DNA of 64,000 bases from a virus: the IMG/VR virus record IMGVR_UViG_3300030419_002557, positions 1 through 64,000 of that record; one strand, written 5' to 3'. Both the position numbers and the translations under genes were made by a program. Under the pieces are notes generated by a model. That model made no database searches, was not told the DNA's origin, and saw only the letters and a program-made list of their open reading frames with translations. Each line of letters begins with the position of its first letter. Position 1 is the first letter of the stretch. This document shows, piece by piece, positions 1-61,489 of this stretch.

Positions 1-2669
1 GCGCATTCAAGAAAGCAGTGTACGGAACAGACATGGTGAACTATTTGGGTCGCCCTGTCCTCATAACGGAAGACCCTAACTTCGGTCAAGAGCACCACTA
101 CGAAGACCTCCATAAGAACACGTCTCTTCAAGCTGAAAAAAAGTGGTATTCAGACGCTGTAAACACCGCACGAGTGAGAGGGATCGAAGCCCATTACGAA
201 GCACAAATTCAGGAGGCAAGAGACAGGGCGAACCAACCAAGGCGTACAACCACAACCACAACCTCGACAGGAGGAGGGTCAGGGAGAGGAGGGACTTCTG
301 GGGATATGGGAGCCCCCGCAAGCCCGCAAACCCGTGCAACAGAAAGGCAGATTGCAGACTACGAAGCCCGTCTCAGAGAGATTCAGGAGAAACGCGGCGG
401 AGTCTTGGGTAGAAGGCGAGACATCCTTGATGATTTCCTTGGCCCAAGAACAGCAACAGAGATGCTTACGCCCTACGAGGTGACCGATCCAGCAACAAGC
501 AGGATTCTGGACGAGGTTATGGGCATTGAGGATGAGGAGGCCCGCAATCGCGCTTTGCGTGAAGGCCGCATGCTCATTGACACTGAACGTGCGAAGTTGG
601 CTCCAGAGTTCGTTGAGTCTCAGGTTCTAAATAGACAAGCGCTCCAAGGGCATTACCAAGACGCATGGCAGGAGCTTGAGAAAGCAAAAAGAACATTTGC
701 GCGTGCTCATGCATCCGCTGTTCGTCTTCGAGCAAAATACGAAGAAATGGTGAAGCCCTTCGAAAACGATCCAAACCGCACTGTGGCGCTGGATGCCATG
801 TCTTCCAAATTAGAGCCGATTGTCGCGGCTATTCAGTCTCAGGAGCGCCTTCAAAGGCGAGCAGAAGAGCGAATGCAAATCATGGGGCAAGTGCATGATG
901 CATTAGAAATGCTTCAAGGGCCGCGCGGTGCCACTGCTGAGTGGTCGTCTTTAAGTCCACAGAACCGCTTGTTGGTTTTGCAAGCAATCAACGCAAAGTC
1001 TACGGCAAAAGCCTCCAGAAATAACGATGAGATTTCCAATGTTCGAGAAGAGATTCGGCTTGCAGAGTTTGAGATCCAAGACTTGGAGCAAAGCCTTGGG
1101 CCAAGAACAAGCGCAGACTTTAGGAACTCTGACCCAGGGCGGGCAGCGCTACAGAATCTTCAAGAAAACCAACAGGCTTTAAACGGGCTTCTTACTGAGC
1201 AAAACGAACATGTGATGTTTTCTGGAGAAGCGCAGGGCGCTATTGACCACTTGGTGGCCAATGACCCAGCCTATCGAATCCAGCCGCCAGCATCTCTTGG
1301 CCTCGGTGTAGAGAGTCCCGCTCTTGACGTTCTTGAAGATGATTTAGAAGAAGAGGCTATGACGCAGTGGCTTAAAGAGGGCGGGCTCGTAGGCGAGGAT
1401 TACGCTGAAGGAATTCTGGAAGGGGCTGATCAGACTTCTATAGATGCTGCTCTGCGAGCAGGGGCTCTGGGGCACGATCCAGCCCAAAGCGCCCAAACCC
1501 AGCTTGAGAGACAAACCCAGCTACAAACCTCATTAGAAGAACGAATCAATGCTTTGTCCGATGAAAGCATTAGAGGTGATACTTCTGCCGTCTTTAAAAT
1601 TCAGCAAGACATCAACGCTTGGCTACTTGATCAGGGAAAAGACCCGATTAAAGAAGACGGTCTTTGGGGAAGCGCAACACAAGATGCCATCAATGATGGG
1701 TACTTGGAAGGTCTTCAGATTCAACTTGAGACGGCGAAAGAGGTACGGGAACAAACCGAAAAACAACTAAATAGGATCTCAGAATTTGAGAAGAGAGAGG
1801 GGCGTCCCGAGTTTCGCGAGGAGGGAGAAGACCCCGGAGCTTCTAAAGTTAGATTGAAAAAAGATGGTGAGGTGGTTCGGTCCTACGATCTTCCAGCAAT
1901 GGAATCGACAGAAGTGCCCGAGGAACTTGTAGACTCTAAGCTCACGATTCCTACTGGAGGCGCTCGCTACCGGACCCCAGGCCTTAGTGTTGAGGAGACT
2001 GTCGAGGGTGCCCGTGCAAAAAGTGAGGAGTTGGATCAAGCTGGAATAATAGAAGTAGAGCCGGTAGAATCTTTTGATTGGGTAACAGAATTCAACACAC
2101 CAGAGGGGCTTACGGAGCCTGAGCCTGAGTTTGATATTGACAGCTTTGAGTTCGATGTAACTACTGAGGATGATCCTTTGCCGCCGCCCCCGTCCCCCTT
2201 GAGGCCGAGCGAGATCGATCTTTGGGAATATCTTGAAGCAGAGAAAAGATTGAAGGAGGAGACGGAGGGCATTGAGTTCGATGTAACTACTGAGGCTGAT
2301 CCGCCCTGGGTTTGGGAAATAGAACAAGAGTTCCCACGATGGTGGAATATCGATTCATACTTGTCTGGTCTGATTTCGCTTGGAAATGATGCACCCGCAG
2401 TTGCGGAGTACCTCACCGAAAAACGATACAACTATGATCCTGTTCTTCATCAGATGCTCTCAGATAAGATCTTTAGCTCCGAGTTTGATCGCAGCATGCA
2501 AGCAGACCGAGCAGTTGCAGAGCAAATTCTTGGTCACTACCAATCAATGAACCTACAGGCTAAGGATAGGTATGGGGATGATTACCAGAACAGGGTAAAG
2601 ACTCATGCCGACATACTTGGTCCTCCTCAGACGGATGATGATATTCTTACTAATGGATTAGGCCTGTAG
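1..2669 (+). CDS. Virion-associated coiled-coil protein, 5' end outside window
   Basis: The frame is already open at base 3, so the true start is probably upstream. The first in-window start codons are GTG at 18 and ATG at 33, and neither has a clear ribosome site. At least 883 residues, strongly hydrophilic, with long Glu/Gln/Arg-rich helical stretches that look like coiled coil. Residues about 523-565 (counted from the GTG) resemble a peptidoglycan-binding type 1 repeat, including the stretch DGLWGSATQDAI. Near the C terminus an EFDVTTE-D/A-DP element occurs twice, and the DNA at about 2148 and 2272 is nearly identical. It lies 15 bases before the giant gene and is probably co-transcribed with it. 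An internal virion or tail protein is my best guess; I do not recognise the family. Confidence 0.8.
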   Translation, partial: AFKKAVYGTDMVNYLGRPVLITEDPNFGQEHHYEDLHKNTSLQAEKKWYSDAVNTARVRGIEAHYEAQIQEARDRANQPRRTTTTTTSTGGGSGRGGTSGDMGAPASPQTRATERQIADYEARLREIQEKRGGVLGRRRDILDDFLGPRTATEMLTPYEVTDPATSRILDEVMGIEDEEARNRALREGRMLIDTERAKLAPEFVESQVLNRQALQGHYQDAWQELEKAKRTFARAHASAVRLRAKYEEMVKPFENDPNRTVALDAMSSKLEPIVAAIQSQERLQRRAEERMQIMGQVHDALEMLQGPRGATAEWSSLSPQNRLLVLQAINAKSTAKASRNNDEISNVREEIRLAEFEIQDLEQSLGPRTSADFRNSDPGRAALQNLQENQQALNGLLTEQNEHVMFSGEAQGAIDHLVANDPAYRIQPPASLGLGVESPALDVLEDDLEEEAMTQWLKEGGLVGEDYAEGILEGADQTSIDAALRAGALGHDPAQSAQTQLERQTQLQTSLEERINALSDESIRGDTSAVFKIQQDINAWLLDQGKDPIKEDGLWGSATQDAINDGYLEGLQIQLETAKEVREQTEKQLNRISEFEKREGRPEFREEGEDPGASKVRLKKDGEVVRSYDLPAMESTEVPEELVDSKLTIPTGGARYRTPGLSVEETVEGARAKSEELDQAGIIEVEPVESFDWVTEFNTPEGLTEPEPEFDIDSFEFDVTTEDDPLPPPPSPLRPSEIDLWEYLEAEKRLKEETEGIEFDVTTEADPPWVWEIEQEFPRWWNIDSYLSGLISLGNDAPAVAEYLTEKRYNYDPVLHQMLSDKIFSSEFDRSMQADRAVAEQILGHYQSMNLQAKDRYGDDYQNRVKTHADILGPPQTDDDILTNGLGL

Positions 2670-2684
2670 ATAGGATTTGGATAA

Positions 2685-5600
2685 ATGGCAACGCCCTCAG
2701 TACCCGGAGCCGGAAGAGCCGGTGTTCGAGCTAACGAAGAAGAAGAACAAGAGGGATACCCAGAGGGTTGGGCGGTGCCTGAACCTCCGCCAGTAAGTTT
2801 GGAGGAAGCCGAAAAACTAAAGATACGGCTTCAAGAAGCTGTTCTCGATTGGGCTCAAAAAACACACCCAGGTTTGACAGAAGAAGAGCGGAAAGAAAAA
2901 GCCGAAGAAAAATGGGAAACCCTTCGGGTACATGACGATTTGAGTTCTGATGCCGCCAGAGCGCATGCGGCATATGAAACGGAAGAAGACAACGCTGATT
3001 TTGAGCTTCTTCGTGTGCTGGTTCCTCGTGAGGCTGTGTTCCCGTTGCCGGGTTCGTGGTCACCAACCGCATCAATGCACCAACGCCTTGAAGACAGAAA
3101 GCTGTTTAGCATTGCGAACTCCCTTCAGAAGGCTGATGGTCTTTCTCCAGAAGAGGCCATGGTTAGGGCGCACCAGTCTCCAGTTTCTCGTCACGAGGGA
3201 GGGGGCCTCGACTTTGCCCAGCGGTTTGAGTCGTTTGAAAGAATGATCAATCGCCCCGGCGCGTTTGGCGCTGTTGTTGACATTGCTAAAGAGAGTGCTG
3301 TTGGCGAGGCTATTCAGTCGGGCGTGGGGTATGCGTGGGACTTTGTCACGCTTGATACCGGGGCTGCGCCAGCCGAGGACTACTACGGTGGCGCAAGAGG
3401 TAAAGAGTGGTGGACGAAAAGATCAACACCATTCAATGTTCAGGCTGTTTTTAAAGGCCACGCTGATGCTGATGCGTTTGAAGACGTATTGTTTAAAGAG
3501 TACCGTGGCGAGGAAAGGCCGTGGTACGAGACTGTAGAAATGCGGGCCCATAAAGGCGAGGCGTATCAAGACGAAATCGATCTTTTCAATAAGAACGTAG
3601 ATCGTAGAAATGAACTCATGAGCGGCAACGCTGAGTTTATAGATTTGTTTGGTCAGTGGGTCAAGCAAAGAGAGGCTTTTCTTGAGGAGGTCGGAAACCT
3701 TAATTATGGCCTTTGGGACCATCTTGACTTTGACAACGCATACGCCGCCAGAAACGTCAATTGGATTGGAAATTACAGACAGGGAACAAAGAGGCCTGAG
3801 CGTTATTCCAGCACTTATTCCGAGGACCGGGCGGCTTGGGGTGAAGCATCGACCTTTCCCAAGGATAGCCAGCTTTACGAGCGTGTAGAAGCTGCTGTTG
3901 AAATGTGGAAGATGGTTGACCAGTTGGACCCAAACTCCGCCATGTACTCCTCAGCAAAAGAAAGGCTCGACCGGGCTCTTGGGAACATTCCAAACGACAT
4001 GTTTCCAGATTCTTTGTTGAGGACCACCCATAGAAATACTTACGGGGAATCGTCCTTTGCGACAAGGGCTGGCCATGTGCGGAATAGCACATGGGGTGAC
4101 GTATCAATGGTTGCCAACCCGCTTTTTGAGTTGGCTACATTGGACCTCGATTTTAGCGGCGTGAAGACCTCGGCACAAGCTGTTGGCCACCTTGGTCTCC
4201 AAACGGCCTCAACGCTGTACCACGGATGGGACAACTACCTTTGGGATTGGACGCACCTTGGTCTTCTGAATCTCATGCCAGAAGACATCGGTCTTACCGC
4301 AGAAGCATTGTACGGCAACTCCGCTATTGAAGATTTCAAGAAGTTCTTTGATAATGAAGAGCTTGTTTCTGATGACTTAGAAGAACGAAAAGCCATCTTG
4401 TATAGGATGGCTCTCGGCATGAGTCGTGCTGAGATGCACCTAAACAAGTTTGTTCTGGATGTTCCCGAACTCTCTAGATTTAAAGATGCGTTTTTGTCGG
4501 CACAAGACTTCCCTGTTGCACCAGAAGTTGCACTGAACGGCGCTACACCCCCTGGTGGCGGAGAGTATCTCACGCACTCGGTGGGTGAGATTATGGATGC
4601 AGCCAAGGAGTCGGCTGAGTCAGAGGGCATGACCCTGGAGGAGTATGTAAACTCCGACACAGGGTGGGCGAACATTAGTCAAAAGCTCAACAAGCTTAAG
4701 CTGTACAAGCTTCCGCACGCGATGTCTTCCGGCCTCATAAACGCTATGGGCGGGTATGAAGGTTTTCGCAAGCACGTCGAAAGGTACGTTGGCGCGAGAG
4801 AGCACTACTTTGGCAGAGAGGACCGGCAGGCCGGTAATTTCGCTATGGAAACTCTCGGTAACGCAATGTCGGACACCTATATTGACGGCGGAAATATCCG
4901 GGTCACAGAAAACACAGCGGGCTCAGTTATGAGGATTGGCTCTACTCTTCTGTTCGACCCCGTTGCAGAAACGGCGATGGATTTGCTTTTTGATCCGTTT
5001 ATGGAACTTAAAGATCAGCTTGGCGGCAGGGCGTGGCATGGTCGAGCCAACGACAGGGGCGGTATTCAAGACTGGTTTTACGGACTAGAAAACCCAGAAG
5101 GCGCTGGCTTTTGGGGCCGACTGCAAGACGCTGCGCTTAATGGTTTACGCTATGACAAGACTGACTCCGAATACCGCAATCTTATTGGGGCAGGCATAGC
5201 TCTGGATATTTGGGTTCCCGGTGAAGGATGGGCTCTTACTGCCATGTCCCGCCCCCTTGTAGGGACCGCCCGACTTGGTAAGTTGATGGAAGACATTCCA
5301 GGCATGCGGATTTCCTCCGACACGTTGCGTGCAGCGTATTTGCCAGAAGGCGTTTTTGGGGCAGGAAGTCTTTGGGAAAAGATCGCCCCAGCAGAAGACA
5401 TTGCCGATTACGAGCGGGCTGTTGATGTTGCCGAAGAATCAGCAACAGCGCGGCGTGACGCAGAGGTCGACGATAGGAGTCGTTTTCAGCGAGCACGCAC
5501 CGCCGTGTTTGGTGACCCGGAAGTAAACCTTGCAAAAAAGAGGTTGAAAAGAGCGCGAGCATACCGGCAAGGCACCATGGGTTGGAGAAGCTGGACCCCT

Positions 5601-8600
5601 TTTGCAAAGCCCAGAGAGCTTAAAGCAGAATTTGGCGGCATGCATGACATTACAAAGATTGCTGCTGAGCAGCACTTCAACAACAACTTAACGCAAGGGG
5701 TTCACCCTTTAGAGGGCTTTGGCCCCAAGTTTAGAAGCAACGTCTACGAGGTGATGAGGCGTGCTGGCGTTAAGGGTGAAGAGGTTGATCGCGTCTTAAG
5801 AGACTCTTCTCAAATGCGAAGCGCCAGATTCCTTTCTGAAGCGGCAGAACGCCTTACAAACGTAGACGACTATACGATGCAGATCAGAGAGTCTGCGCTG
5901 TACAGTCGGCTTAGAGATGAGCTTGAGGCGGCAAATCATCGTACTCCACTGCACTACAAGAACCTTCGTGGCGTTGACGCGGTTGATGCTTGGATGGCGA
6001 TGGTAGAGACTATTGGTGTAGCATTTGCTCGAACAAGAGGCCTTGAAGACGGTTTAAAAGCTACAGAACAATTCATGCAGCAGCGTCTTGCTGAGATTGA
6101 TTCTGGTCGGCTTATAGAGCCACCATCCAGGGCTATTGCGGGAGACACAAGAGGCTTCGATTCAGCCAAACAGGGTTTGATGGATGGAGTACCCTCTGAT
6201 CAAATCAAGATTCGGGAGGTTAACCTCGACAACGAGGCAGAACTTTTAGCGATGAAAAACTCGTCAGAGTACGAGACTGTTAGAGCTATTGGTGACAAGC
6301 AGGCCTTGCGAAGCATGTCTATGTCTTTGCTGGTTACCCTGCTGGGTCGAGTGGAGGCTGGAAGCAATGTTGGTGCGGACATTCTAGGGGAAATCGCACA
6401 CCGACTTTCAAAAGAGTTTGCTGACTCCCCAGGCACCGCACAATCAAAGTTTGACGAATTTGTTGAGCTTCTCTCCCAGGCGGAGGAAGACCTGCTTTCG
6501 CGGCTTCCAAACCAAGCAGATCGTGTTCAAAACCTGTTCGACAACATTCTTAATGATATTTCAGAACGGGTTCGTCTTGCTCGTGAAACACTTGATGAAT
6601 CATCTACGGCAAAAGCCACTAAGGTTCAGGCCGACACAGGTCGGGCGCAAATCGTCCAAGCTATTAGGAAGCTTGTTGAGGGAGACCTTCTTGAAGCTGA
6701 GCAAGGCGCGGTACTAGAGGCGCTTGTCATGTCTCTTCCTGAAAGGGTTCTCAGAGACATTAGGCTTTCGGAACAGATTGCCGGTATTGCGCGTGGTAAT
6801 GCAGCACGAAGCCTGCCTCTCCTTTCCGAGGGTGGGCCTGTAGACCGTCTAATAAGCTCTGTAGAGTTCTACGGTTTCGCTGACGAGGTTGGAACGCTTA
6901 AGGCTGGGGAAAACGCCCTTTTCGTGGGCGCAACGGTCGACGAAGTCCTGCAAGCGATTCGGTTTAAAAGAGATGAAAATCAAGGGTTTAAATCGTTAGG
7001 CATTCGGTACGTCAGCAAGAAGAAGAATCCCGATACCGGAAAAGCATACACCGCCAGAGAGCTTGCGGAAAAATACGTTGATGCTGAAACGTGGATGCGT
7101 AGGCAGCAAGGAGAGTCCTTTTCGCCCGAGAAGATCGAACAGCTTGTAAACCAGTTCGAAAAGGCACTTCATGCGTACAAGAAGGGATCTGACCGCGTTG
7201 GCCCTCGCACATACCAATTTCTTCATGAGTTGGGGCACGCCATATCTATGTCGTTCCTTTCAGACAGTGAGATCGCTATCCTGTCGAAGGCTTTTCGCGA
7301 TGAGTTAGACGACTTTGGCTTGTTCAGGGACACCCCCTATACTCGCGAATTCTCAACAATGACTGACGTTCAGTTTACTGAGTGGTTTGCGGAGAACTTT
7401 GCAGAGTATGTGATTACGCACCAGTTGCCTAAAGTTCTTGCCGGTGACGCCGGTTCGTCTGGTTTACTCCGCATTTTTAGCAACATCATGGAGCGTCTGT
7501 CTAACTACTTTAGCTCTTGGTTCCGTCGTGCTCCACGCGCAAAGACTGACTTCCATCCGGCCCTCGCAAATGTCATTGATCGCCTTTTCGATGGAAAAGC
7601 AGCGGCCATGGCTTCTAGGCGGGAAATCGCGCTCCGTCGTGCTTCACGGTATCAAATGCGTCTGTCCGACGAGGGCATTTTTAGCACACTGTCGGTGCAG
7701 CGATCCGGTCTTGATGGCCAATACATTCCAGAACTTGATGACGTTGAAGTTGCTGAAGACCTGTTGAGGATGGATGAGGGACCACAGGTTGACGTTGTAG
7801 ACGCTGAGAAGTCCAACATTCCAAGTGATGTCGGTCTTGGTGAACTCAGCCTCGACGAAGCAAATGCTGCAATGCGTCAAGCAAAGACAGGCTCACAGCT
7901 TGCTGACTTTATCTCTGAGAACGCAAGCGACCCTGTACACCAACGTATTGCTGAGCGTATCAAGCCTCACTTGAACGATACTGAGGTTCATGTAATCGAG
8001 GGCCCTGATGATATACCCGAAGCCATATATGAAATGGAGAAGAAAGGCACACTGCCAAAACTTGTTGCCTATCAAATAGCCACACTCTCCGCACACGAAT
8101 CTCGGTTGAGGTCAGTCACCAGGGGCCTGAACTGGTCACCCGAGGGTGACGCTTTTAATGATGTGTTCCTTCGTGGAAACAAGGCTTACTCTGGAACAAC
8201 CGCTGAAACAGCGTTGCACGAGTTGGTACATGCAGCCACCGTGAGGCGGCTTTCTGATGGCAACCTTTCTGCTAACAAGGGCACTGCGCTTCAAAAAGCT
8301 ACGTCTGATATTTTTGACCTTCGCAACCAAGTCGTCAAGATTGCCAAACAAGCTCAAAAAGACAAGACTCTTGATCCAGCGATTGAAGACATCCTGATAA
8401 GAGCAACAGCAAACGAGAAAGAGTTTGTTGCTTATGGCCTGACAAACAAGACATTCCAAGACTACTTGATGACCATTAAGGTCGAAGACAAGTCAATGTG
8501 GAACGTCTTTGTCGAGAAGATTGCAGACCTTCTTGGTGTTGCCAAGAAGGACCAAAACGCTTTAACGGACTTGGTCCGCATGACGGACGAACTGCTTGAC

Positions 8601-11600
8601 GCGCCACTTGAGGAGCTTCCGTCGCGGCCATTGACCGAATGGCTGACTCTGATGGAGGAGCCTGTTGGCGCTGCCGCTAGAGCGGCTGATGACGTGGAGA
8701 TTACCGTCGCAGCGGTGGGCATGCGTCCTGAGTTTATGGAAGCGCAGTTGCTAATGAACCGCGCAAACGAAGCTAGAAAGAGCAGGGATGCTGCCACAAA
8801 TGCTGGCACACGTCGGATGTACCAGCGCCAGCTTGATACGGCGAATAGAAGACTCTACCTCTTGCTTGAACCAGACCTTAAAAAGGCTTTGACTGAGGGT
8901 CTTGACCCTGATGTGGTTCAAATCACAAATCTCACCGAGGCTGGAGGTTTTGAGCGCAGCCTTGGTGCGTTTGCTGATTATGCCCCAGAGGGTGGGTTCT
9001 ACGTCACGCTAAAGGGTCCTCGCGACATCATCTTGGGGCGCGTTGCCGAGTATTCGCGGGCCTACAACCAAGACGCAATGCTGGTTCGTGAGCGAATCAA
9101 AACGGTTGACATTGATAAAACCAAGCCCCTGATCGAACAAATATCTTTTGATGACAAAGGTGTTCAGCGCGGAGCCACGGCACGAATTGTTATTCCTCGT
9201 GCTTTTGAAGGCAAACTTGCTCAAGCGATTATGCAAACAATCGCTAAGAACGAGACCGGCGCAACAATCCGTTTAGATACTTTAGAAGACGGAAGAGGTG
9301 TAATCGAGTTGGTCCATGTACCAGAGTGGATTCCAGCCCAATACGCCTCAGTTGAGACATTTCGTGACATTGTAGAGAAGGTCGCGGGTGATATTAAAGA
9401 ACATACCAAAAAGAAAAAGCTTGGCGACGTAGAGGTCACTTTTGAACAGGAGTCCGTCTACGCTGTTTCACACAGCAGGGGAGCACCAGATGCCGCAAAC
9501 AACCCAGGACTCTATGAATACTGGATCGAACGAAGCAGAAACCAACTCAGAAAGCAGGGAAGAGATGCTGCGCCGCTTTTCGAACTCGCTGAGGAAGGTG
9601 TTGGAACTGGACCCGTTACCCGAGGACCACGACTTCAGCCCGGAGGCGACAGACCGGCGGTTAATGGATCTAATTCCCTCCTCGACATCCCAGGGGCAGC
9701 AAGGCGAATTGGACCAGAAATCAGAAGAGTCCTCAATGAGCGTGATGCTTTTGACTCAGGGCACCTTTCAGAAGAACTAGCGGCTGAGTTCAATGTTCAA
9801 TCAGAAATCGCTGGTGGAACGCCTCATGACATTGTTGATTTAGAAGTAGATTCTGGTCTTAAACAACGGATTTCTTTATCCGAGATCACGCCAAATCAAG
9901 CATCAGAAATCAAGTCAAGGCTTGGCACAGCGAACCCTCTTGAGGATGTTTCGTTTGATGTAGAGTTTACTGTTGAGCGCGTCACCGAAACCCCAGAAGG
10001 AAAGGTTGTTGAGCGCTCCAAAGTGTCTGTTCCTGTGTTTCCAGTCTTAAAGGCAACAGACTTCGCTGGAGCAAAGGGGCAGAAAGTTCTTATTCCGGGT
10101 GGAATGGAGGGAACCTTTAGCTTCTCGGACGTTCAATACCTGGCCAGAAGACCTATTGAAATGATTCTGGAGGAAGCAGCAACCAAGTGGTGGGATGATC
10201 TCCCTAAAAATGATGATGGTGTAAACATCTTTGGCAAGAGGGAGGATCTTGGAAACTATGATGAGATCATGGCCCAGTACAAGGAGGCGTATTCCTCCAT
10301 GCTGGATCGCATGTATGACAAGCTGCACAACAGCTACGGCCTAGAGAAGCATCGCCCTAAAAACGAAGAAATCTTTGATGGCGGTAGATTTAAGAGCAAG
10401 GAAGCAAAGTTCCAGTGGGAACAAGAAATTGAAATCCACATGATGGATGTCGCTTCTCAGTATGTTTTTGCATACCTGTCAATGCAAACCAACCTCTTAG
10501 ACAATCAGGCGTTTGCCGCAGTTGTAAGGCCGAGAAGCTTTGCTGATCTGTCGGATATGGTCAACAGATACCGAACGGCTAAGCGAAACAAAGGTTCAGA
10601 CCTTGATCGGGATGAAGCAAACCACATTCTTGGGTTTTCTCTAACTTTGTCGGAAGGTGTTTTAAAGAACCGTTTTGGTAAGAAGACAAAGCTTGCTGAT
10701 GTCGAGACAGACATCCTTCCAATAATCCAGATTCATGATTGGACCAAGCCCGGTGGGCCGTTGATTACTGTGCAGTCTGTTGACATTGCGCCGCTCAATG
10801 CGGACAAAATCGCAGGAAAAACTAGGAAAGCGCTGGCCCGCTACGTCAAATCAAAAGAAAAGGTTGCAAAGAAAGAAGCGCTTCTTGCAAGAACAAAAGA
10901 CGCATCGAAAAGAAAAAGGATTCGGGCGGAGCTTAGGGCTGCGATTAAGGAGATGCAGGCCGCCGATGTTCAACACCAGGCGCTGCTTAACTCTGTTTCT
11001 ACCCAAGACGTTGTACAGCTTACCGGCGACATTGCTTTATCAAGCCCAGCAAACACCACCCGTCTGCTGGAAATGTACGAGATGATGCATGAGGACTTCT
11101 TAAGAGTCCAAAAAGGAGAACTTAAGCACGGCTTTTTCGAGCGCTATCCTGGCGAAGATTGGGATGCGTTCTCTGATAGGGTGTCCAGCATGGTGCCAGG
11201 AATGGCAACCAAGATCAGCGCATTCGGAATCTATTGGCAAAACCCTATTGCGGCCTCAATTGGTGCTCTCGACATCCATATGATTGGAATGATTGGGCCT
11301 GAACTCTTTAAGGAGCAGCGCTGGCTGAATAAGGCTGAGGGCTGGTATCGAGACTGGCAGTCGATCAAAAGTGATGCTGCAAAGAAGCACCTAAAAGAGG
11401 TAGCTGAAACCGCGCTTATTAGAGATACAGGCACCGAACCAACAAAGACAGCAATCTCAAAAAAAGCAAAGGAGATGCTTTCTTCTGAGCTTAAGGAAAG
11501 GGCTCGCGTTTCGTTTGAAGACTTTCTTTCCACAGGCAAATCCAATCCCGCATACACGTTTTGGCGCGAACAGTTGAGGGGCGAGATTACTGCTCCTGAG

Positions 11601-14600
11601 AAGTACCTTATTCACCCGACTGGTGTTCCAGAGTACAAAAGAGCTTTTGATCCAAAGCGAATTGATTCTAATAAAATCAAAGAGTTATTAGCCGCTGTAA
11701 AGGCAAACAAGAAGCTTACACCGAAACAAAGAAAAGAAAGAACCAGAAAGCTTGAAAGAGCACTGTTTGCACATGAGCACATTGAAAATGCTCAGCGCAT
11801 GTATGGCGCTGATCATCCAATCATTCAGCGGTTCGTCAAAGAGGCGAGAGTAACAGGCTCAACCGTCGATGTTATGTCTCCAGAATACAAAAAGGTTTTA
11901 GATGGACTTCACTCTAAATCCGTTGATAGAGACATCTTTGGTGATGTGGCGACATTGCAGCACAGGATTTGGGATGAATGGCGCGGATACCTTGATCCGC
12001 ATGTGATTGTTCACCCAGGTAGCGCTATGCTTCCGGCTGTAAGGCCAGCGGCCCTCAAGGCCGTGGTGAAAGCTTTGGAGGATTCTCTCCCAGAAATCCG
12101 AGACCCCCGTGTACAGGCAGAGCTTACAAGGCGGCACAGCCGCCTGACAAGCGGCCTGTTTGGTCGTGGATTTAGAGAGCTACACTCTTCGTTTAAAGAA
12201 GGAAGGTTTGGAGGAACCTCTCCGTTCGAAGACAGGCCGCTGCCTACTGAGCTTAGTCGCGGTGCTCTTTACATAGCTGATTCGTCGCCGCCATCGAGCA
12301 GCCTGGACGTGTTCCTTGAGGGCGGCTCTGACATGGCTGATTTTTTCAACCATGGTGACCTCTCTTCTCTGTTTAACCGTGGCAGCAATGCGCTCATGAT
12401 GTTGTTGGGAGAAGAGTTCCCAATGGTTATGGACATCTTTGTAGACAAGTTCGACAGCATAGTTGCTGATGACGGATCCCGTGTACTTACAGAGAGGGGT
12501 TTTGGCGAACTTAAAGAATCTTTCAGCACTTACTGGCACGATGGGCATGTTCGAGATCCTCGTCTTGATATTGCGTATGACAGTGTCAAAGACAGGCTTG
12601 CTGTGTTTTGGCGTCGATTGCGGCACAGCGCTGACCGGACAAACCCCGGCGTCAGAAGGTTTTTCGATGAGTGGCTTGGTGTTCTAAACGATGCAAAGAA
12701 AGAAGCGATGCTTGATGTTAAAAACTCTGCTGAGTTTAAAAACATCCCGAAGATACAGATCGAAGAGTTTAAACCAGGCCAAGCTTCTGAACTGCTTGAA
12801 ACAGAACAGGTAGCCAAAAGAGGGCGAGCAAGAGAAAAGGCTCGCATCGATATGGACGAGGGACGGATTCGTTATGCCTTGGGCCTTACCGATGAAGTGA
12901 CCGAGGTCGATGCTTTTAGCGCGATGGAAAAAGCCGTAGGCTACGTCGCAACTGAAATGTCGAGGCTTAAGCACACCAACCACTGGGTTTCTTTTTCAAC
13001 AAGAAGCGTTGTTCCGGCGCGTCTTCTGCCTAAATACTTGGAAGAAGCACAACTTAGAAACTACTCTGTGTTTGGCGACCCGCACGTTCTTAAGAAGCAG
13101 TTTGAGAGAATCCCGCTTGAGCGGGTAAAGCTTGATGAGTTTGGTGAGCCCGTGATGGACACACCGTATGGTGTAGTCGAACCACAGCCTGTAATGGAGG
13201 TTGTGACAGAGGTTCTTCCAGATGGAACGGAGCGAGTAGTAGAGATTGATGTCATCAATCTTAATGAGCTACAGCAAGATCGGTTGAAGCAGTTGCTTAT
13301 TGAACTGGCTGTTGACCCAAGAACAAAACAGTTAACCCAAGAGGTTTTGGGGGAATACCTTCTTCCAAATGCAAATCTCGATCAGATTCCTTTTAAGCAC
13401 TATGAGTTCATCACTCAGGAACTATTGAGAGATCACGTTGTTGGAATCGGGTCAGGCATGACCAAGGAAATCAAGAATGTCCCCCGATCTCTCGGGTTTG
13501 CCGCCGTTCAGGCTCTTATGGGGCCCAGGGGGCTTGGAATGTTTGACAATATCCAGTCCCTCCAAAAGAGCCTTTCTCAGAAGTTCAAAACACGAGCCCC
13601 TCTTGCACACATGGGCAAGAATAAAGACGGGAAAGTTCGAGACGGCCAAGTTGTAAGCCCCATTGTTCAGGAGCTTTTTCAGCGTAGAATGCGCCAGATT
13701 GATGACATTCCAAACTGGATCAAGCGAGTTCAGAGCGCGTTGGCGAACAGGCAGAACCCTGCTGGCGTTTGGGAGGTGATTGAAGGTCTTCAAAACGTGC
13801 TTGAGCAACCTATTCATCAGCACACATACCGAGTGTTAGACCGGCTTGAGCTTTTGTTTATGGGAGAAGCAAAGGGCATTAACCCTAATCAGGTCGGTGA
13901 TGCACTAGATGACATTGCCAGGGCGTTTGCTGACAACAGGTTGATGACCAAGTCTGAGCGTGCAGCAATCAATCTTCTTAGAGACTTTGAGCGCATCAAG
14001 ATTTTAGAGCCCGAACGAACAATGGTTAAGGGCGACAAGGTTTATATTAAAGATCCTGCTCAGAGGGAGGCAATAGCAGATGCCTATATGGTAATACAAG
14101 AGGGTATCGCCAGGCGTCTTGAGATTGCAGATCAACATGCAAGAATCATCATGGAGGGCATGGGTGGTTCTCCAGAACAGAAGGTAAAGCTTTTTAGGAC
14201 TGGAGATGGTCAGCTTTCCACAATCAACAGAGACAGAGCTATTCGCCTTTATGACAGCTTTTATAAAGGCGAGTGGGGAGCGCTTCTTGACCAACTGGCA
14301 AGAGAAGGGCTGTCAACAGGTACTGCCCTGAAGTATCCGGGCAAGTTCAACGTCCTTCACGCAATGCTTGAGACAGTGATTCGATTGAGGGCTCAAAGCA
14401 TTTTTATGGACTTGGTCAATGACATGACCGACATGGGTATGTCTGTTCGCATTGAGGACCTGGCTCCAAAAGACATCACCAACATGGCCGAAAAGCGAGC
14501 CTTTGCTCAGCGCGTAAAACTTTACCTCAATGAGGAGCTTAAGTTTGGTGGCCCGCTTCAAATAGTGGACGAAACTGGACGAGTTTATGATGCAACAGAA

Positions 14601-16919
14601 GCATTCGAGCGGGTCAGAACTGAGCCGCTAACTGGACAAAAGATCCAGGGGGCCGGGCCAGGCGCAGAAGATTTTTCAAGAGAAGCGAGGGCGAGAGCAA
14701 GCAAAATCGGTGCCTACAAGCCTATTCATGAAAGAATGGGCGACGTTATTCATAAAACAAAAGTTCACGATCTCGAAGCCTTTACGGTCGCCACACAGCT
14801 AATCGAGCAGTGGGGAATGAAGATTGGCGCTAACATTGAAAACTGGGAGTTGGTGAGGTTTGCGGACGGTTCCGAGGCCCTGGTTCCAAAGCTTCTTCTT
14901 GATGAAGTTCAAGACGCTATGGACAGGGTTGCTGGTCAGGCTTCTGCAAGACAGGGAGTCACCAGCCGCTATCGTTTGCAGCCGAAAGGCTTCTATGAAG
15001 GGTTCCTCCCAGAGGTCGGGCAGCCCCCACTGAAAACAAAAGCAAAGGTTTTTGTTGGCGATGCGATCAACTTGCTGAGCAACTCATTCAATGTCAGCTA
15101 TCGACTAATGAAAATGGGCCTTACGTCAGGGCTCTTCATAGTCAATCTCCCTTACTACATGGCAAACGCCTTTGGTGCTCAACTACAGACGTATCAAGCG
15201 CTTGGTTTGAAAGGGTATTTTTCCTCAATGAGTCGACCAATGCTGGCGTTAGAGATTTCCGCAGCTTTGTGGGGTGACGCACCAACTATGCGGTGGACAA
15301 AGGTAAAGCCTGTTGTAATGCCGGACGGTACAGTCTGGACAAAAGAGTCTTTGACAAGAGCCGCTCACGAACACGGTTTGTCCGGCTCATTCCTGTCAAA
15401 AGAAACAGCAAGGACCGTTGCCGAAGATTTGAAGAAGAAAGAGCCTACCTTCTGGAACAAAATGACTGCCGCGCCAAAGTTCTATCACGCGCAGCTAATC
15501 AACTTTGCGACGTTCCTCGACAACTATCATCGTGTTGCAATCTTCGTTGAGCAGATCGGAAAAGGCGCTTCGGCAAGAGAAGCAGCAGCCGTGTCAAGGA
15601 AAGCGCTGTTTGACTATTCAGACCTCACTGACTTTGAAAAGAAATACATGAGGCAGATCTTCATCTTCTATTCGTTCCAACGAAAGAACATTGATTTGTT
15701 CTGGGACACCTTGTTGACCAACCCCCACAGGGTAATGGGGCAGTTGCGATTTGCCCGTGGTTTAAACCAGACCTTTTTGGATGGTGATGAACGCCTAATT
15801 GAAAGCGACTGGAGTCTTGGCCGCGTTGGTGTGAAATATCAAGATTTTGCAGCCAGCAGATTTGTACAGAAAGCAAGGTACAATGCGCCTATTTTTCCTG
15901 TTCAAGAAGCCTTGCGCGGACAATTAGACTTTCTTAGTTTTCTCGGCAGTTTTCTTCCTGGCGAGGGACTCATGGAAGGCGAGAAAAGAATGAAGGCACG
16001 CTTGAAGTTTTTAGGAAGGCTGAACCCTTGGCTTCAAGCGCCCTTAGCATTAACTCTCAACAAGACATTCTTTGGCGCAAGACCTATGAGGCCAGAGAGA
16101 ATTCCGCTGTTTATGGTCCAGCATGACTTATTAACAACAGGTGGAATAGTGATGCGCTCAATCGGCGCTCAAGCCAAAGCATTGAAGCGATGGGAAGAGC
16201 AAGACTACCCAGGGCAAACACATGCATACTATGCCACAAACACCACCGCTTGGTATCTGTTGCAGAACCTGTGGCATGGGCCGCTGCCGGTAATGCCTAT
16301 GCGTGAGGACATTCCAGGCACAAGTAAGATTCGAAAGTTTGTTCCAGGTGGAGAAGCAGTTGGAGAAGCTCTCGACCATATGCCTCTTGGATATGTGCTT
16401 CGAGCGCGTCCGCTCAAGGGATTGAAAGAGGGAACATTAAGTTACACCACTGCTGGTCGCATGATGGATACGATTGAGCGCCTAAACAGGGCGGGCGGTG
16501 GTGTTCTACGTCCAGATATTGTCGATGCTCAACTTAGAGCAGACATGGCGCACTACAAAGGCCTGGTTGAGTCTGGAAGAAGAGAGCCTCTCTTTGGCAA
16601 CATTGGAGAAGAGGAACGCCTTACATCTCAGGAGCTAAACGCAGCAGGGTTCCGTGTTGATCCAGAAACTGGAAACGTGGCGTGGCGTGATGACGCGCAA
16701 GGCGTTCCCGTTCGTGGGGCAAGAGGCCGACCAGGCATTCAGGAAGGTTGGTTGTCAATCGTGTTTAGTCCCCAAAAAATCTACACCGAAGAATATGCCA
16801 TTCTTATGGAGCACTACCGCTATCGACAATTGCTTAAAGCTGCTTTGAAAAAGCAGTTTGCTGTAGACTATGACAAAGAAATCCTTGAAGGCCGATACAT
16901 ATCAGAAGGTAGTGACTAG
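2685..16919 (+). CDS. Giant polyvalent-type virion protein with two zincin motifs (4,744 aa)
   Basis: One uninterrupted frame of 14.2 kb, with ATG preceded by an AGGA-containing leader. Seen in the sequence: a first zinc protease motif HELGH at residues 1514-1518 with downstream candidate ligands E1570/E1574; a second, HELVH, at 1845-1849 followed by NEKEF (E1913); and near 2838-2870 a VPG..TK / LDIH pair resembling the helix-hairpin-helix-GPD core of endonuclease III. Toward the C terminus, around 15.1-15.8 kb, is a hydrophobic block followed by a motif of the form FDYSDLTDFEK then FYSFQRKN, of a kind I associate with large phage virion proteins. This architecture matches the polyvalent protein idea (many enzymatic modules on one injected polypeptide). 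Delivery into the host and catalytic activity are inferred. No RNA polymerase motifs, transglycosylase or tape-measure repeats were recognised. Confidence 0.85.
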   Translation: MATPSVPGAGRAGVRANEEEEQEGYPEGWAVPEPPPVSLEEAEKLKIRLQEAVLDWAQKTHPGLTEEERKEKAEEKWETLRVHDDLSSDAARAHAAYETEEDNADFELLRVLVPREAVFPLPGSWSPTASMHQRLEDRKLFSIANSLQKADGLSPEEAMVRAHQSPVSRHEGGGLDFAQRFESFERMINRPGAFGAVVDIAKESAVGEAIQSGVGYAWDFVTLDTGAAPAEDYYGGARGKEWWTKRSTPFNVQAVFKGHADADAFEDVLFKEYRGEERPWYETVEMRAHKGEAYQDEIDLFNKNVDRRNELMSGNAEFIDLFGQWVKQREAFLEEVGNLNYGLWDHLDFDNAYAARNVNWIGNYRQGTKRPERYSSTYSEDRAAWGEASTFPKDSQLYERVEAAVEMWKMVDQLDPNSAMYSSAKERLDRALGNIPNDMFPDSLLRTTHRNTYGESSFATRAGHVRNSTWGDVSMVANPLFELATLDLDFSGVKTSAQAVGHLGLQTASTLYHGWDNYLWDWTHLGLLNLMPEDIGLTAEALYGNSAIEDFKKFFDNEELVSDDLEERKAILYRMALGMSRAEMHLNKFVLDVPELSRFKDAFLSAQDFPVAPEVALNGATPPGGGEYLTHSVGEIMDAAKESAESEGMTLEEYVNSDTGWANISQKLNKLKLYKLPHAMSSGLINAMGGYEGFRKHVERYVGAREHYFGREDRQAGNFAMETLGNAMSDTYIDGGNIRVTENTAGSVMRIGSTLLFDPVAETAMDLLFDPFMELKDQLGGRAWHGRANDRGGIQDWFYGLENPEGAGFWGRLQDAALNGLRYDKTDSEYRNLIGAGIALDIWVPGEGWALTAMSRPLVGTARLGKLMEDIPGMRISSDTLRAAYLPEGVFGAGSLWEKIAPAEDIADYERAVDVAEESATARRDAEVDDRSRFQRARTAVFGDPEVNLAKKRLKRARAYRQGTMGWRSWTPFAKPRELKAEFGGMHDITKIAAEQHFNNNLTQGVHPLEGFGPKFRSNVYEVMRRAGVKGEEVDRVLRDSSQMRSARFLSEAAERLTNVDDYTMQIRESALYSRLRDELEAANHRTPLHYKNLRGVDAVDAWMAMVETIGVAFARTRGLEDGLKATEQFMQQRLAEIDSGRLIEPPSRAIAGDTRGFDSAKQGLMDGVPSDQIKIREVNLDNEAELLAMKNSSEYETVRAIGDKQALRSMSMSLLVTLLGRVEAGSNVGADILGEIAHRLSKEFADSPGTAQSKFDEFVELLSQAEEDLLSRLPNQADRVQNLFDNILNDISERVRLARETLDESSTAKATKVQADTGRAQIVQAIRKLVEGDLLEAEQGAVLEALVMSLPERVLRDIRLSEQIAGIARGNAARSLPLLSEGGPVDRLISSVEFYGFADEVGTLKAGENALFVGATVDEVLQAIRFKRDENQGFKSLGIRYVSKKKNPDTGKAYTARELAEKYVDAETWMRRQQGESFSPEKIEQLVNQFEKALHAYKKGSDRVGPRTYQFLHELGHAISMSFLSDSEIAILSKAFRDELDDFGLFRDTPYTREFSTMTDVQFTEWFAENFAEYVITHQLPKVLAGDAGSSGLLRIFSNIMERLSNYFSSWFRRAPRAKTDFHPALANVIDRLFDGKAAAMASRREIALRRASRYQMRLSDEGIFSTLSVQRSGLDGQYIPELDDVEVAEDLLRMDEGPQVDVVDAEKSNIPSDVGLGELSLDEANAAMRQAKTGSQLADFISENASDPVHQRIAERIKPHLNDTEVHVIEGPDDIPEAIYEMEKKGTLPKLVAYQIATLSAHESRLRSVTRGLNWSPEGDAFNDVFLRGNKAYSGTTAETALHELVHAATVRRLSDGNLSANKGTALQKATSDIFDLRNQVVKIAKQAQKDKTLDPAIEDILIRATANEKEFVAYGLTNKTFQDYLMTIKVEDKSMWNVFVEKIADLLGVAKKDQNALTDLVRMTDELLDAPLEELPSRPLTEWLTLMEEPVGAAARAADDVEITVAAVGMRPEFMEAQLLMNRANEARKSRDAATNAGTRRMYQRQLDTANRRLYLLLEPDLKKALTEGLDPDVVQITNLTEAGGFERSLGAFADYAPEGGFYVTLKGPRDIILGRVAEYSRAYNQDAMLVRERIKTVDIDKTKPLIEQISFDDKGVQRGATARIVIPRAFEGKLAQAIMQTIAKNETGATIRLDTLEDGRGVIELVHVPEWIPAQYASVETFRDIVEKVAGDIKEHTKKKKLGDVEVTFEQESVYAVSHSRGAPDAANNPGLYEYWIERSRNQLRKQGRDAAPLFELAEEGVGTGPVTRGPRLQPGGDRPAVNGSNSLLDIPGAARRIGPEIRRVLNERDAFDSGHLSEELAAEFNVQSEIAGGTPHDIVDLEVDSGLKQRISLSEITPNQASEIKSRLGTANPLEDVSFDVEFTVERVTETPEGKVVERSKVSVPVFPVLKATDFAGAKGQKVLIPGGMEGTFSFSDVQYLARRPIEMILEEAATKWWDDLPKNDDGVNIFGKREDLGNYDEIMAQYKEAYSSMLDRMYDKLHNSYGLEKHRPKNEEIFDGGRFKSKEAKFQWEQEIEIHMMDVASQYVFAYLSMQTNLLDNQAFAAVVRPRSFADLSDMVNRYRTAKRNKGSDLDRDEANHILGFSLTLSEGVLKNRFGKKTKLADVETDILPIIQIHDWTKPGGPLITVQSVDIAPLNADKIAGKTRKALARYVKSKEKVAKKEALLARTKDASKRKRIRAELRAAIKEMQAADVQHQALLNSVSTQDVVQLTGDIALSSPANTTRLLEMYEMMHEDFLRVQKGELKHGFFERYPGEDWDAFSDRVSSMVPGMATKISAFGIYWQNPIAASIGALDIHMIGMIGPELFKEQRWLNKAEGWYRDWQSIKSDAAKKHLKEVAETALIRDTGTEPTKTAISKKAKEMLSSELKERARVSFEDFLSTGKSNPAYTFWREQLRGEITAPEKYLIHPTGVPEYKRAFDPKRIDSNKIKELLAAVKANKKLTPKQRKERTRKLERALFAHEHIENAQRMYGADHPIIQRFVKEARVTGSTVDVMSPEYKKVLDGLHSKSVDRDIFGDVATLQHRIWDEWRGYLDPHVIVHPGSAMLPAVRPAALKAVVKALEDSLPEIRDPRVQAELTRRHSRLTSGLFGRGFRELHSSFKEGRFGGTSPFEDRPLPTELSRGALYIADSSPPSSSLDVFLEGGSDMADFFNHGDLSSLFNRGSNALMMLLGEEFPMVMDIFVDKFDSIVADDGSRVLTERGFGELKESFSTYWHDGHVRDPRLDIAYDSVKDRLAVFWRRLRHSADRTNPGVRRFFDEWLGVLNDAKKEAMLDVKNSAEFKNIPKIQIEEFKPGQASELLETEQVAKRGRAREKARIDMDEGRIRYALGLTDEVTEVDAFSAMEKAVGYVATEMSRLKHTNHWVSFSTRSVVPARLLPKYLEEAQLRNYSVFGDPHVLKKQFERIPLERVKLDEFGEPVMDTPYGVVEPQPVMEVVTEVLPDGTERVVEIDVINLNELQQDRLKQLLIELAVDPRTKQLTQEVLGEYLLPNANLDQIPFKHYEFITQELLRDHVVGIGSGMTKEIKNVPRSLGFAAVQALMGPRGLGMFDNIQSLQKSLSQKFKTRAPLAHMGKNKDGKVRDGQVVSPIVQELFQRRMRQIDDIPNWIKRVQSALANRQNPAGVWEVIEGLQNVLEQPIHQHTYRVLDRLELLFMGEAKGINPNQVGDALDDIARAFADNRLMTKSERAAINLLRDFERIKILEPERTMVKGDKVYIKDPAQREAIADAYMVIQEGIARRLEIADQHARIIMEGMGGSPEQKVKLFRTGDGQLSTINRDRAIRLYDSFYKGEWGALLDQLAREGLSTGTALKYPGKFNVLHAMLETVIRLRAQSIFMDLVNDMTDMGMSVRIEDLAPKDITNMAEKRAFAQRVKLYLNEELKFGGPLQIVDETGRVYDATEAFERVRTEPLTGQKIQGAGPGAEDFSREARARASKIGAYKPIHERMGDVIHKTKVHDLEAFTVATQLIEQWGMKIGANIENWELVRFADGSEALVPKLLLDEVQDAMDRVAGQASARQGVTSRYRLQPKGFYEGFLPEVGQPPLKTKAKVFVGDAINLLSNSFNVSYRLMKMGLTSGLFIVNLPYYMANAFGAQLQTYQALGLKGYFSSMSRPMLALEISAALWGDAPTMRWTKVKPVVMPDGTVWTKESLTRAAHEHGLSGSFLSKETARTVAEDLKKKEPTFWNKMTAAPKFYHAQLINFATFLDNYHRVAIFVEQIGKGASAREAAAVSRKALFDYSDLTDFEKKYMRQIFIFYSFQRKNIDLFWDTLLTNPHRVMGQLRFARGLNQTFLDGDERLIESDWSLGRVGVKYQDFAASRFVQKARYNAPIFPVQEALRGQLDFLSFLGSFLPGEGLMEGEKRMKARLKFLGRLNPWLQAPLALTLNKTFFGARPMRPERIPLFMVQHDLLTTGGIVMRSIGAQAKALKRWEEQDYPGQTHAYYATNTTAWYLLQNLWHGPLPVMPMREDIPGTSKIRKFVPGGEAVGEALDHMPLGYVLRARPLKGLKEGTLSYTTAGRMMDTIERLNRAGGGVLRPDIVDAQLRADMAHYKGLVESGRREPLFGNIGEEERLTSQELNAAGFRVDPETGNVAWRDDAQGVPVRGARGRPGIQEGWLSIVFSPQKIYTEEYAILMEHYRYRQLLKAALKKQFAVDYDKEILEGRYISEGSD

Positions 16920-31402: not shown

Positions 31403-31478
31403 TGGGGCGTGGTCCAATTGGAAGGACGCCCGACTGTTACTCGGGAAGGTGGTGGTTCGAGTCCACCCGCCCCAGCCA
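31403..31478 (+). tRNA. tRNA-Asn (anticodon GUU), CCA encoded
   Basis: Full cloverleaf of 76 bases: acceptor TGGGGCG/CGCCCCA, D stem GTCC/GGAC, anticodon stem CCCGA/TCGGG with loop CTGTTAC (anticodon GTT), T stem GGTGG/CCACC with loop TTCGAGT, discriminator G, and genomic CCA. It begins on the base after the helicase stop codon, so it must be cut from that transcript or have an internal promoter. Confidence 0.95.
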
Positions 31479-60436: not shown

Positions 60437-61489
60437 ATGGCTGTTACCCAGGCCACTGGCCTAAATATCACCGACGAGCTTCTCTCGTCGACCTTGTATT
60501 TGCTCGCGGAAGACTTCCGTGACAACCTTGCCCGCACCACGGCGTTGATTGACGTTCATGAAGAAGTTCATGGCAAAGGTCAGCCCAAGGTTGAGGGTGG
60601 AACCCGCTACATCGAGCCACTTGGCTTTGGTGAGCACAGTAACGCGACTCGTATGCAGACTGGATACGAGAAGCTTAACTTGACCGTGGCCGATGTTCTT
60701 CTGCCAGCGGTGTACACTCCTGCACACACCACGATGCCGATTGCCATCTCTAAGGATGAGGAAATCAAAAACCGTGGTGAAGCTGCTGTGATTAGCATCC
60801 TTGATGCTCGCACTAAGGCTGTGATGGGTGCTATGCGCCGTAACCTCCTCCGCAAGACGGTTGAGGGTGTGGACGCAGGCGGTTTTGCTGATTGGGCAAC
60901 GCTCAACGGTATTACCTATGCTACTGGTTACCTTGAGGAGAACGCTATTGGAGCGCAAGCCAACTCTGTTGGTGGTGTTTCTAAGGCTACCTACTCTGGT
61001 ATTCCCGGCTGGAACAACCAACGCGCCAACATCAACAACAGCTTCAACGCTAACGGTCTTCAAGCTCTTGTTGACTTGCGTGTTGAAACTTCTGCTGTGT
61101 CCCCTGGTGGCGAGCCTCACATCTGGCTGGCGTCTCGTGCAGGAGCGAAGAACCTCAAGCGTTCTCTCCGTGCATTCGAGCGCTACGTCGACGAGGCTAA
61201 GCTCGACGGTGGCCGTATGGTTCAGATGTGGGACGGTATCCGCATGGAAACCGAATACTACATGCCCACCAACACTGCTACTCACACTACTGCTACCATC
61301 AGCTTCTACTTGTTGAATCTTGATGACATCCACTACGTCTTCGATAGCGAAGGATACTTCGATGTATCTCCGTTCGAGAAGATCAGCGGTGAGTACGATG
61401 TTCGTTCGGCAAATGTTCGTCTCTACGGACAGCTTGTTGCTAAGCACCTCGGTTCGTCAGGCATTGCCTATGACGGTGAAACCTTCTAA
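60437..61489 (+). CDS. Major capsid protein, HK97-like, 350 aa
   Basis: Length and location right after the scaffold, plus an alternating alpha/beta composition, fit an HK97-fold capsid protein. Notable stretches are EEVHGKGQPKVEGGTRYIEP (E-loop-like region) and the C-terminal SANVRLYGQLVAKHLGS. No delta-domain or protease is visible, consistent with a separate scaffold. Builds the capsid shell. Confidence 0.82.
   Translation: MAVTQATGLNITDELLSSTLYLLAEDFRDNLARTTALIDVHEEVHGKGQPKVEGGTRYIEPLGFGEHSNATRMQTGYEKLNLTVADVLLPAVYTPAHTTMPIAISKDEEIKNRGEAAVISILDARTKAVMGAMRRNLLRKTVEGVDAGGFADWATLNGITYATGYLEENAIGAQANSVGGVSKATYSGIPGWNNQRANINNSFNANGLQALVDLRVETSAVSPGGEPHIWLASRAGAKNLKRSLRAFERYVDEAKLDGGRMVQMWDGIRMETEYYMPTNTATHTTATISFYLLNLDDIHYVFDSEGYFDVSPFEKISGEYDVRSANVRLYGQLVAKHLGSSGIAYDGETF

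What the first reader, a model, noticed from the sequence alone, without database searches (positions are those of the whole stretch)
2685..16919. 4,744-residue polyvalent-type giant with two distinct zincin motifs
A single frame uses 22 percent of the window. HELGH (1514-1518) and HELVH (1845-1849), each followed by a Glu ligand candidate, sit about 330 residues apart, so two different metallopeptidase domains may travel on one virion protein. Known polyvalent proteins (Iyer and colleagues' concept) often carry one such domain.
Basis: partly seen in the sequence, partly recalled or inferred. Interest (0 to 1): 0.8.

Follow-up and report, generated by a model that had tools for sequence, protein, structure and literature searches.

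The report
Giant phage entry protein, two zincin-like domains
A short-tailed phage known only from a metagenome encodes a 4,744-residue protein that is most likely packed in its head and injected with its DNA; it carries two different metal-protease-like domains, one kept by all close relatives and one that comes and goes like a cassette, which makes it a new member of a known class rather than a new kind.

Summary
One open frame (2685-16919, 4,744 aa) holds exactly two HExxH motifs, HELGH 1514-1518 and HELVH 1845-1849, each with a downstream E-x-x-A glutamate (E1566/E1570 and E1913). Two or more HExxH arise in 0.7% of shuffles. Both motifs are invariant in two 59-60% identical homologues. They are different domains (profile comparison probability 3.4%), not a duplication.

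Zincin 2 is well supported. Its model matches the HExxH domain of N4 virion RNA polymerase, and its profile matches ejection proteins of phages PhiM1, phiKMV and N4. Zincin 1 is supported by conservation and a subthreshold Pfam zincin match; its fold was not confirmed.

The genome looks like a circularly permuted 72-kb podovirus. The giant is most likely a packaged, injected 'polyvalent' ejection protein. It has no detectable RNA polymerase or DarB enzymes. Dual zincins are precedented: Iyer et al. report one to five per protein, and Serratia phage Parlo has two.

The most useful new point is that zincin 1 is in 5/5 close relatives, whereas zincin 2 is accessory (3/5). Zincin 2 also occurs at 58% identity in an otherwise unrelated phage protein, beside other in/out cassettes. 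That argues against zincin 2 being needed to mature the giant.

The parts
2685..16919 (+). Giant ORF, 4,744 aa: inferred podoviral ejection / polyvalent virion protein
   Evidence: homologues of 4,224-4,705 aa in IMG/VR
6822..7664 (+). Zincin 1 region (residues about 1380-1660), core domain present in 5/5 close relatives
   Evidence: Pfam ATLF subthreshold in 3/6 members, best E 3.8e-5
7224..7238 (+). HELGH motif, residues 1514-1518
7380..7394 (+). E1566-W-F-A-E1570, candidate third zinc ligand of zincin 1
   Evidence: E1566 and W1567 invariant in six sequences; position 1570 is E in four, D in two
7647..7829 (+). Low-confidence linker between the zincins (residues about 1655-1715); in L002 an acetyltransferase-like cassette of about 210 aa sits here
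   Evidence: pLDDT about 29-47; L001 vs L002
7827..8639 (+). Zincin 2 (residues about 1715-1985): N4-vRNAP / phiKMV-gp37-type HExxH domain, accessory module
   Evidence: PHROG 2206 E 2.9e-19; hmmsearch vs PDB; model match Z 7.8; absent from L064 and L066
8217..8231 (+). HELVH motif, residues 1845-1849
8421..8423 (+). E1913 in KEFVAYGL, candidate third ligand of zincin 2
   Evidence: invariant in five diverse sequences; at least 90% in 35
8697..9644 (+). Module X (residues about 2005-2320), in the window and L066 only; no recognised domain
12735..16289 (+). C-terminal region (residues 3351-4535), the most widely conserved part, shared with distant giants L014, L067, L070 and L071
   Evidence: AF2 model poor (mean pLDDT 50.9)
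18..2669 (+). Upstream virion-block ORF, interrupted by the ends of the 72,076-base record; its 5' part lies at the record's far end
   Evidence: both record ends match one 1,053-aa ORF of L001
50264..51859 (+). Terminase large subunit (context)
   Evidence: PHROG 2, E 3.1e-36
60437..61489 (+). Major capsid protein (context)
   Evidence: PHROG 9953, E 1.4e-13; tblastn hits to phage major capsid proteins including Myxococcus phage Mx9
24268..25170 (+). Endolysin, downstream of the giant (context)

Best explanation
The ORF is a giant ejection ('polyvalent') protein of a podovirus. It is made late, packed inside the capsid and expelled through the short tail with the DNA as a chain of loosely linked domains. 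Zincin 1 is a fixed core domain of this family. Zincin 2 is an exchangeable accessory domain of the class found in N4 virion RNA polymerase and in phiKMV/PhiM1 ejection proteins. My best guess is that zincin 2 acts after delivery, cutting a host target or freeing neighbouring cassettes, while zincin 1 is the better candidate for any processing the whole family needs. Shown: the gene, conserved motifs, zincin-2 homology and fold match, and the in/out pattern of modules. Inferred: packaging, ejection, zinc binding, peptidase activity and targets.
For: Zincin 2: PHROG 'virion RNA polymerase' E 2.9e-19, aligned to positions 2026-2248 of that profile; profile hits to PhiM1 gp48 (7.2e-12), N4 vRNAP (4.8e-8) and gp10 of 23sg (1.9e-6); model match to N4 vRNAP 2124-2359, Z 7.8, then to a solved putative metal-dependent hydrolase, Z 6.1; viral-library hits to internal virion proteins, virion RNAPs and polyvalent proteins. 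Named phage tblastn hits are internal core/ejectosome proteins, vRNAPs and a DarB-like giant. Context: terminase and capsid genes, a gp10-like head-closure protein, and the giant before the lysis gene, as in Parlo and Bcep22-like phages, where the 4,515-aa JC1 gp69 was found in virions with 51 peptides (PMC9144972). Modularity: zincin 1 in 5/5 and zincin 2 in 3/5 close relatives; zincin 2 alone in L008. Four-fold-site identity of zincin 2 between the window and L001 is 0.62 vs 0.33 for the rest of the giant (p = 1.5e-9) and 0.37 for a gene of equal protein identity (p = 1.4e-5).
Against: No proteomics or enzyme data. Zincin 1 fold not confirmed. No homologue of residues 2002-4744 in named phages, so the virion role rests on context and one domain. 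Foldseek against PDB gave nothing at E <= 0.001, and Z 7.8 is modest. The raised synonymous identity of zincin 2 is not above terminase (0.54, p = 0.24), so recent exchange is likely, not proven. In N4 and phiKMV the domain is a fixed part of the ejection protein, which also fits a structural role.
Confidence: 0.62

Rival explanations
1. Both zincins are self-processing proteases that cut the giant into pieces before or during packaging, as proposed for P1 DdrB.
For: Iyer et al. propose autoprocessing for polyvalent MPTases (PMC5512222); a low-confidence linker separates the two domains.
Against: Zincin 2 is missing from two of five close relatives of similar size; N4 vRNAP, which carries the same domain, is packaged unprocessed according to PMC5512222.
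Confidence: 0.2
2. The HExxH domains are structural parts of the ejection machine and no longer act as peptidases.
For: Zincin-2-like domains are fixed parts of phiKMV gp37 and PhiM1 gp48, and no substrate is known.
Against: H-E-x-x-H and the downstream Glu are conserved at 90% or more across 35 diverse sequences, and both motifs are invariant in close relatives.
Confidence: 0.15
3. The giant is an anti-restriction protein of the P1 DarB type, as Parlo gp81 and Bcep22-like giants are annotated.
For: Similar size and gene position.
Against: No methylase or SWI2/SNF2 helicase found by Pfam, PHROGs or NCBIfam; no Burkholderia phage among the tblastn matches.
Confidence: 0.05
4. It is a tail tape-measure protein of a long-tailed phage.
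For: Very long, and the largest gene of the virion block.
Against: A gp10-like head-closure protein and podoviral neighbours; N4/phiKMV-type domain; no strongly hydrophobic segment.
Confidence: 0.03

Closest known systems
N4 virion RNA polymerase gp50, C1 domain (residues about 2124-2375; PMC12633501)
   Same: Zincin 2 matches its HExxH domain in sequence profile and predicted fold; giant, loosely connected multidomain protein.
   Different: No RNA polymerase domain or motifs found in the window protein; one HExxH domain is described for N4 vRNAP, and nothing like zincin 1 was detected in it.
phiKMV gp37 / PhiM1 gp48 tetrameric ejection protein
   Same: Same zincin-2 class with HExxH and downstream Glu.
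   Different: About 1,260-1,340 aa, one HExxH in gp37; rest not similar.
Serratia phage Parlo gp81 (DarB-like, 3,764 aa)
   Same: Zincin 2 at 29-30% identity; also two HExxH motifs; giant gene followed by lysis genes.
   Different: Its second motif (HEAFH, residue 2557) lies after zincin 2, not before; no other similarity found.
Bcep22-like giants such as JC1 gp69 (4,515 aa, PMC9144972)
   Same: Size, fraction of genome, position at the end of the virion block; JC1 protein found in virions.
   Different: No sequence match found.
Polyvalent proteins (Iyer et al. 2017, PMC5512222)
   Same: Very large late-gene protein combining MPTase and cassette domains.
   Different: Most of the window protein has no recognised domain.

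Membership tests
Zincin metallopeptidase superfamily: zincin 2 | HExxH on one helix, Glu on a second, beta-strands before | tested here: met
   Strands 433-437 and 492-496, HELVH helix 506-525, E1913 helix downstream, pLDDT mostly 80-95; matches N4 C1 and a solved putative metal-dependent hydrolase. Metal binding untested.
Zincin metallopeptidase superfamily: zincin 1 | HExxH on one helix, Glu on a second, beta-strands before | tested here: inconclusive
   Motif and E-W-x-A conserved; Pfam ATLF subthreshold, best 3.8e-5; model shows both helices at pLDDT 61-81 and no sheet.
Polyvalent proteins (Iyer et al. 2017) | Several unrelated domains in one chain, including a known polyvalent domain such as the MPTase | tested here: met
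   Two different HExxH domains plus cassette modules.
Polyvalent proteins (Iyer et al. 2017) | Encoded with phage packaging/virion genes | tested here: met
   Terminase, capsid and head-closure genes in the same block, endolysin after.
Polyvalent proteins (Iyer et al. 2017) | Delivered into the host with the DNA | not testable with these tools
   Needs proteomics of virions and of infected cells.
N4-type virion RNA polymerase | Single-subunit RNA polymerase domain | tested here: not met
   PHROG match confined to the post-polymerase HExxH part; B-motif pattern absent.
P1 DarB | Adenine methylase fused to SWI2/SNF2 ATPase | tested here: not met
   No such domain by Pfam, PHROGs or NCBIfam on the whole protein; Pfam and PHROGs also on segments.
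Podoviral ejection (internal virion) protein | Packed in the capsid and forms part of the ejectosome | not testable with these tools
   Inferred from domain relatives and gene context.

The most novel reading that the evidence does not exclude
The giant is a delivery chassis: zincin 1 and the C-terminal part are fixed, and the stretch around residues 1700-2330 is a loading bay in which whole effector domains (zincin 2, an acetyltransferase-like domain, module X) are swapped between phages by recombination, with zincin 1 releasing the cargo after entry.
Probability: 0.2. Interest if true: 0.65.

Novelty: new member of a known kind. Interest (0 to 1): 0.4.

Why it matters
What HExxH domains do in injected phage proteins is an open question: N4, phiKMV and PhiM1 carry the domain, but no activity was found described in the papers read here. 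A family in which close relatives differ by the clean presence or absence of one such domain is a natural experiment. It says zincin 2 is dispensable for building and delivering the giant, and points to zincin 1 for any shared processing. It also suggests that the insides of ejection proteins evolve by cassette exchange.

Tried and rejected
Whole-protein Pfam, PDB phmmer and NCBIfam searches: nothing significant. Genome-contig scan with the family alignment: no relatives. Scans for more zincin-1 relatives found only L001 and L002. Tandem duplication of one zincin: rejected, profiles do not align (probability 3.4%). RNA polymerase motifs: B-motif pattern absent; other simple patterns gave only isolated hits. 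Zincin-1 profile against PDB: chance-level kinase and ribosome-maturation hits, no zincin. AF2 of residues 3351-4535: mean pLDDT 50.9, not used for fold search. Foldseek of the two-zincin model against PDB: nothing at E <= 0.001. Recent exchange of module X between window and L066: not supported by synonymous sites (p = 0.36). Search of the own record with Pfam RNA_pol was uninformative because no control rang. Gill et al. on Bcep22 was not held.

Full report
WHAT WAS CLAIMED AND WHAT IS THERE. The frame 2685-16919 encodes 4,744 residues from an ATG. Composition predicts 0.14 such motifs. Two or more appear in 0.74% of 5,000 shuffles, and in 0.04% when a preceding hydrophobic residue and a downstream E-x-x-A are also required. 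Two IMG/VR contigs (L001, L002) encode full-length homologues at 59-60% identity in which both motifs and the candidate third ligands, E1566/E1570 and E1913, are invariant. The gene and the motifs are real.

GENOME. The window is bases 1-64000 of a 72,076-base virus record. Its two ends both match one 1,053-aa ORF that precedes the giant in L001, so the record looks like a circularly permuted, near-complete genome. It encodes a terminase large subunit, a major capsid protein with tblastn hits to the capsid proteins of Myxococcus phage Mx9, Stenotrophomonas phage BUCT555 and others, and a gp10-like protein that matches 'phage stabilization' and 'head closure' proteins. An endolysin, RecE/RecT and a DnaB-type helicase follow. 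Together this indicates a podovirus, but morphology was not observed. The giant sits near the end of the virion block before the endolysin. Serratia phage Parlo and Bcep22-like phages have the same layout; in JC1 the 4,515-aa gp69 fills 22.1% of the genome and was detected in virions with 51 unique peptides (PMC9144972).

ZINCIN 2. Residues 1715-1985 match PHROG 2206 'virion RNA polymerase' (E 2.9e-19) at profile positions 2026-2248, beyond the polymerase. Iyer et al. place an HEXXH MPTase domain of N4 vRNAP at 2130-2448 (PMC5512222); the N4 structure paper calls it C1, 2124-2375 (PMC12633501). By tblastn the same stretch matches phiKMV-type internal virion proteins, N4-type virion RNA polymerases and Parlo gp81. 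A 35-sequence profile hits solved ejection proteins: PhiM1 gp48 (7.2e-12), N4 vRNAP (4.8e-8), gp10 of entry 23sg (1.9e-6), and the phiKMV-type protein itself, a close relative of which is in the alignment. AlphaFold2 models it mostly at pLDDT 80-95, and VIA-align ranks N4 vRNAP 2124-2359 first (Z 7.8), then a solved putative metal-dependent hydrolase (Z 6.1). The Z values are modest, but the match covers the expected domain and agrees with the independent sequence evidence. Viral predicted structures matched include internal virion proteins, virion RNA polymerases and 'large polyvalent protein' entries.

ZINCIN 1. LHE..H and E-W-x-A are invariant across six family members. Three members hit the Pfam lethal-factor-type zincin family, all below its cut-off, best 3.8e-5. 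First-zincin regions of the distant giants L071 and L067 are related to it (hhalign E 2.9e-5, probability 74%). The model puts HELGH and E1566 on two helices at pLDDT 61-81 but shows no beta-sheet, and the fold comparison barely tested this part. I treat it as a probable, unconfirmed zincin. It does not align with zincin 2 (probability 3.4%), so the two are different domains.

MODULES. Among five close full-length relatives, zincin 1 is present in all; zincin 2 is present in the window, L001 and L002 and absent from L064 and L066. L001 and L002 are 96% identical on both sides, yet L002 alone carries a cassette of about 210 aa in the linker between the zincins. That cassette is 39-42% identical to phage acetyltransferases and matches PHROG 2563. 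Module X (about 2005-2320) is in the window and L066 only. Zincin 2 also occurs at 58% identity in the 2,232-aa L008 protein, which shares nothing else detectable with the giant. Between window and L001, zincin 2 has four-fold-site identity 72/117 against 346/1064 in the rest of the giant (p = 1.5e-9) and 88/240 in a virion gene of equal protein identity (p = 1.4e-5); terminase is not different (p = 0.24). The five best 40-codon nucleotide windows all lie in zincin 2. Recent exchange of zincin 2 is therefore likely, not proven.

MECHANISM. Shown: conserved gene, motifs, zincin-2 homology, module gain and loss. Inferred: the protein is packed in the head and ejected, because the annotated relatives of zincin 2 seen here are internal, ejected or giant virion proteins, apart from entries annotated only as hypothetical or by their lytic domain. 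Since zincin 2 can be absent from a similar-sized relative, it is probably not needed to build or package the giant; I favour action after entry. Zincin 1 is the better candidate for processing shared by the family. Neither activity has been shown.

COMPARISON AND NOVELTY. It fits the polyvalent-protein concept. It is not an N4-type virion RNA polymerase (no polymerase) and not a P1 DarB (no methylase or helicase found). [quoted passage not shown] Parlo gp81 has two HExxH motifs, and L009, L014 and L019 also have two, one of which is the zincin-2 match. The rest of the giant has no match in named phages. Verdict: new member of a known kind, with an unusually clean natural comparison for the function of zincin 2.

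Noticed in passing
L002 giant residues about 1706-1915 (locus about 11,233-11,862): An acetyltransferase-like cassette (PHROG 2563) inserted between the two zincins, absent from the 96% identical L001 giant.
   Followed up: partly
window 18-2669 and record end 64001-72076 (L003:7416-8075): The two ends of the 72-kb record match consecutive parts of one ORF of L001, so the record looks circularly permuted and near complete.
   Followed up: yes
window 50264-51859 vs L062; window 2685-16919 vs L001: Terminase is 89% identical between the window phage and the L001 phage while the giant is only 59% identical: the giant evolves much faster or by replacement.
   Followed up: partly
window 8697-9644: Module X (residues about 2005-2320) is 63-71% identical to L066, higher than the flanks, with no recognised domain and no synonymous-site sign of recent exchange.
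   Followed up: partly
L009 ORF at 7544, residues 824 and 1096: Another phage giant carries two HExxH motifs in tandem, both followed by zincin-2-like E-x-x-A motifs.
   Followed up: no
window 31403-31478: A single tRNA-Asn (GTT) gene next to the DnaB-type helicase gene.
   Followed up: no
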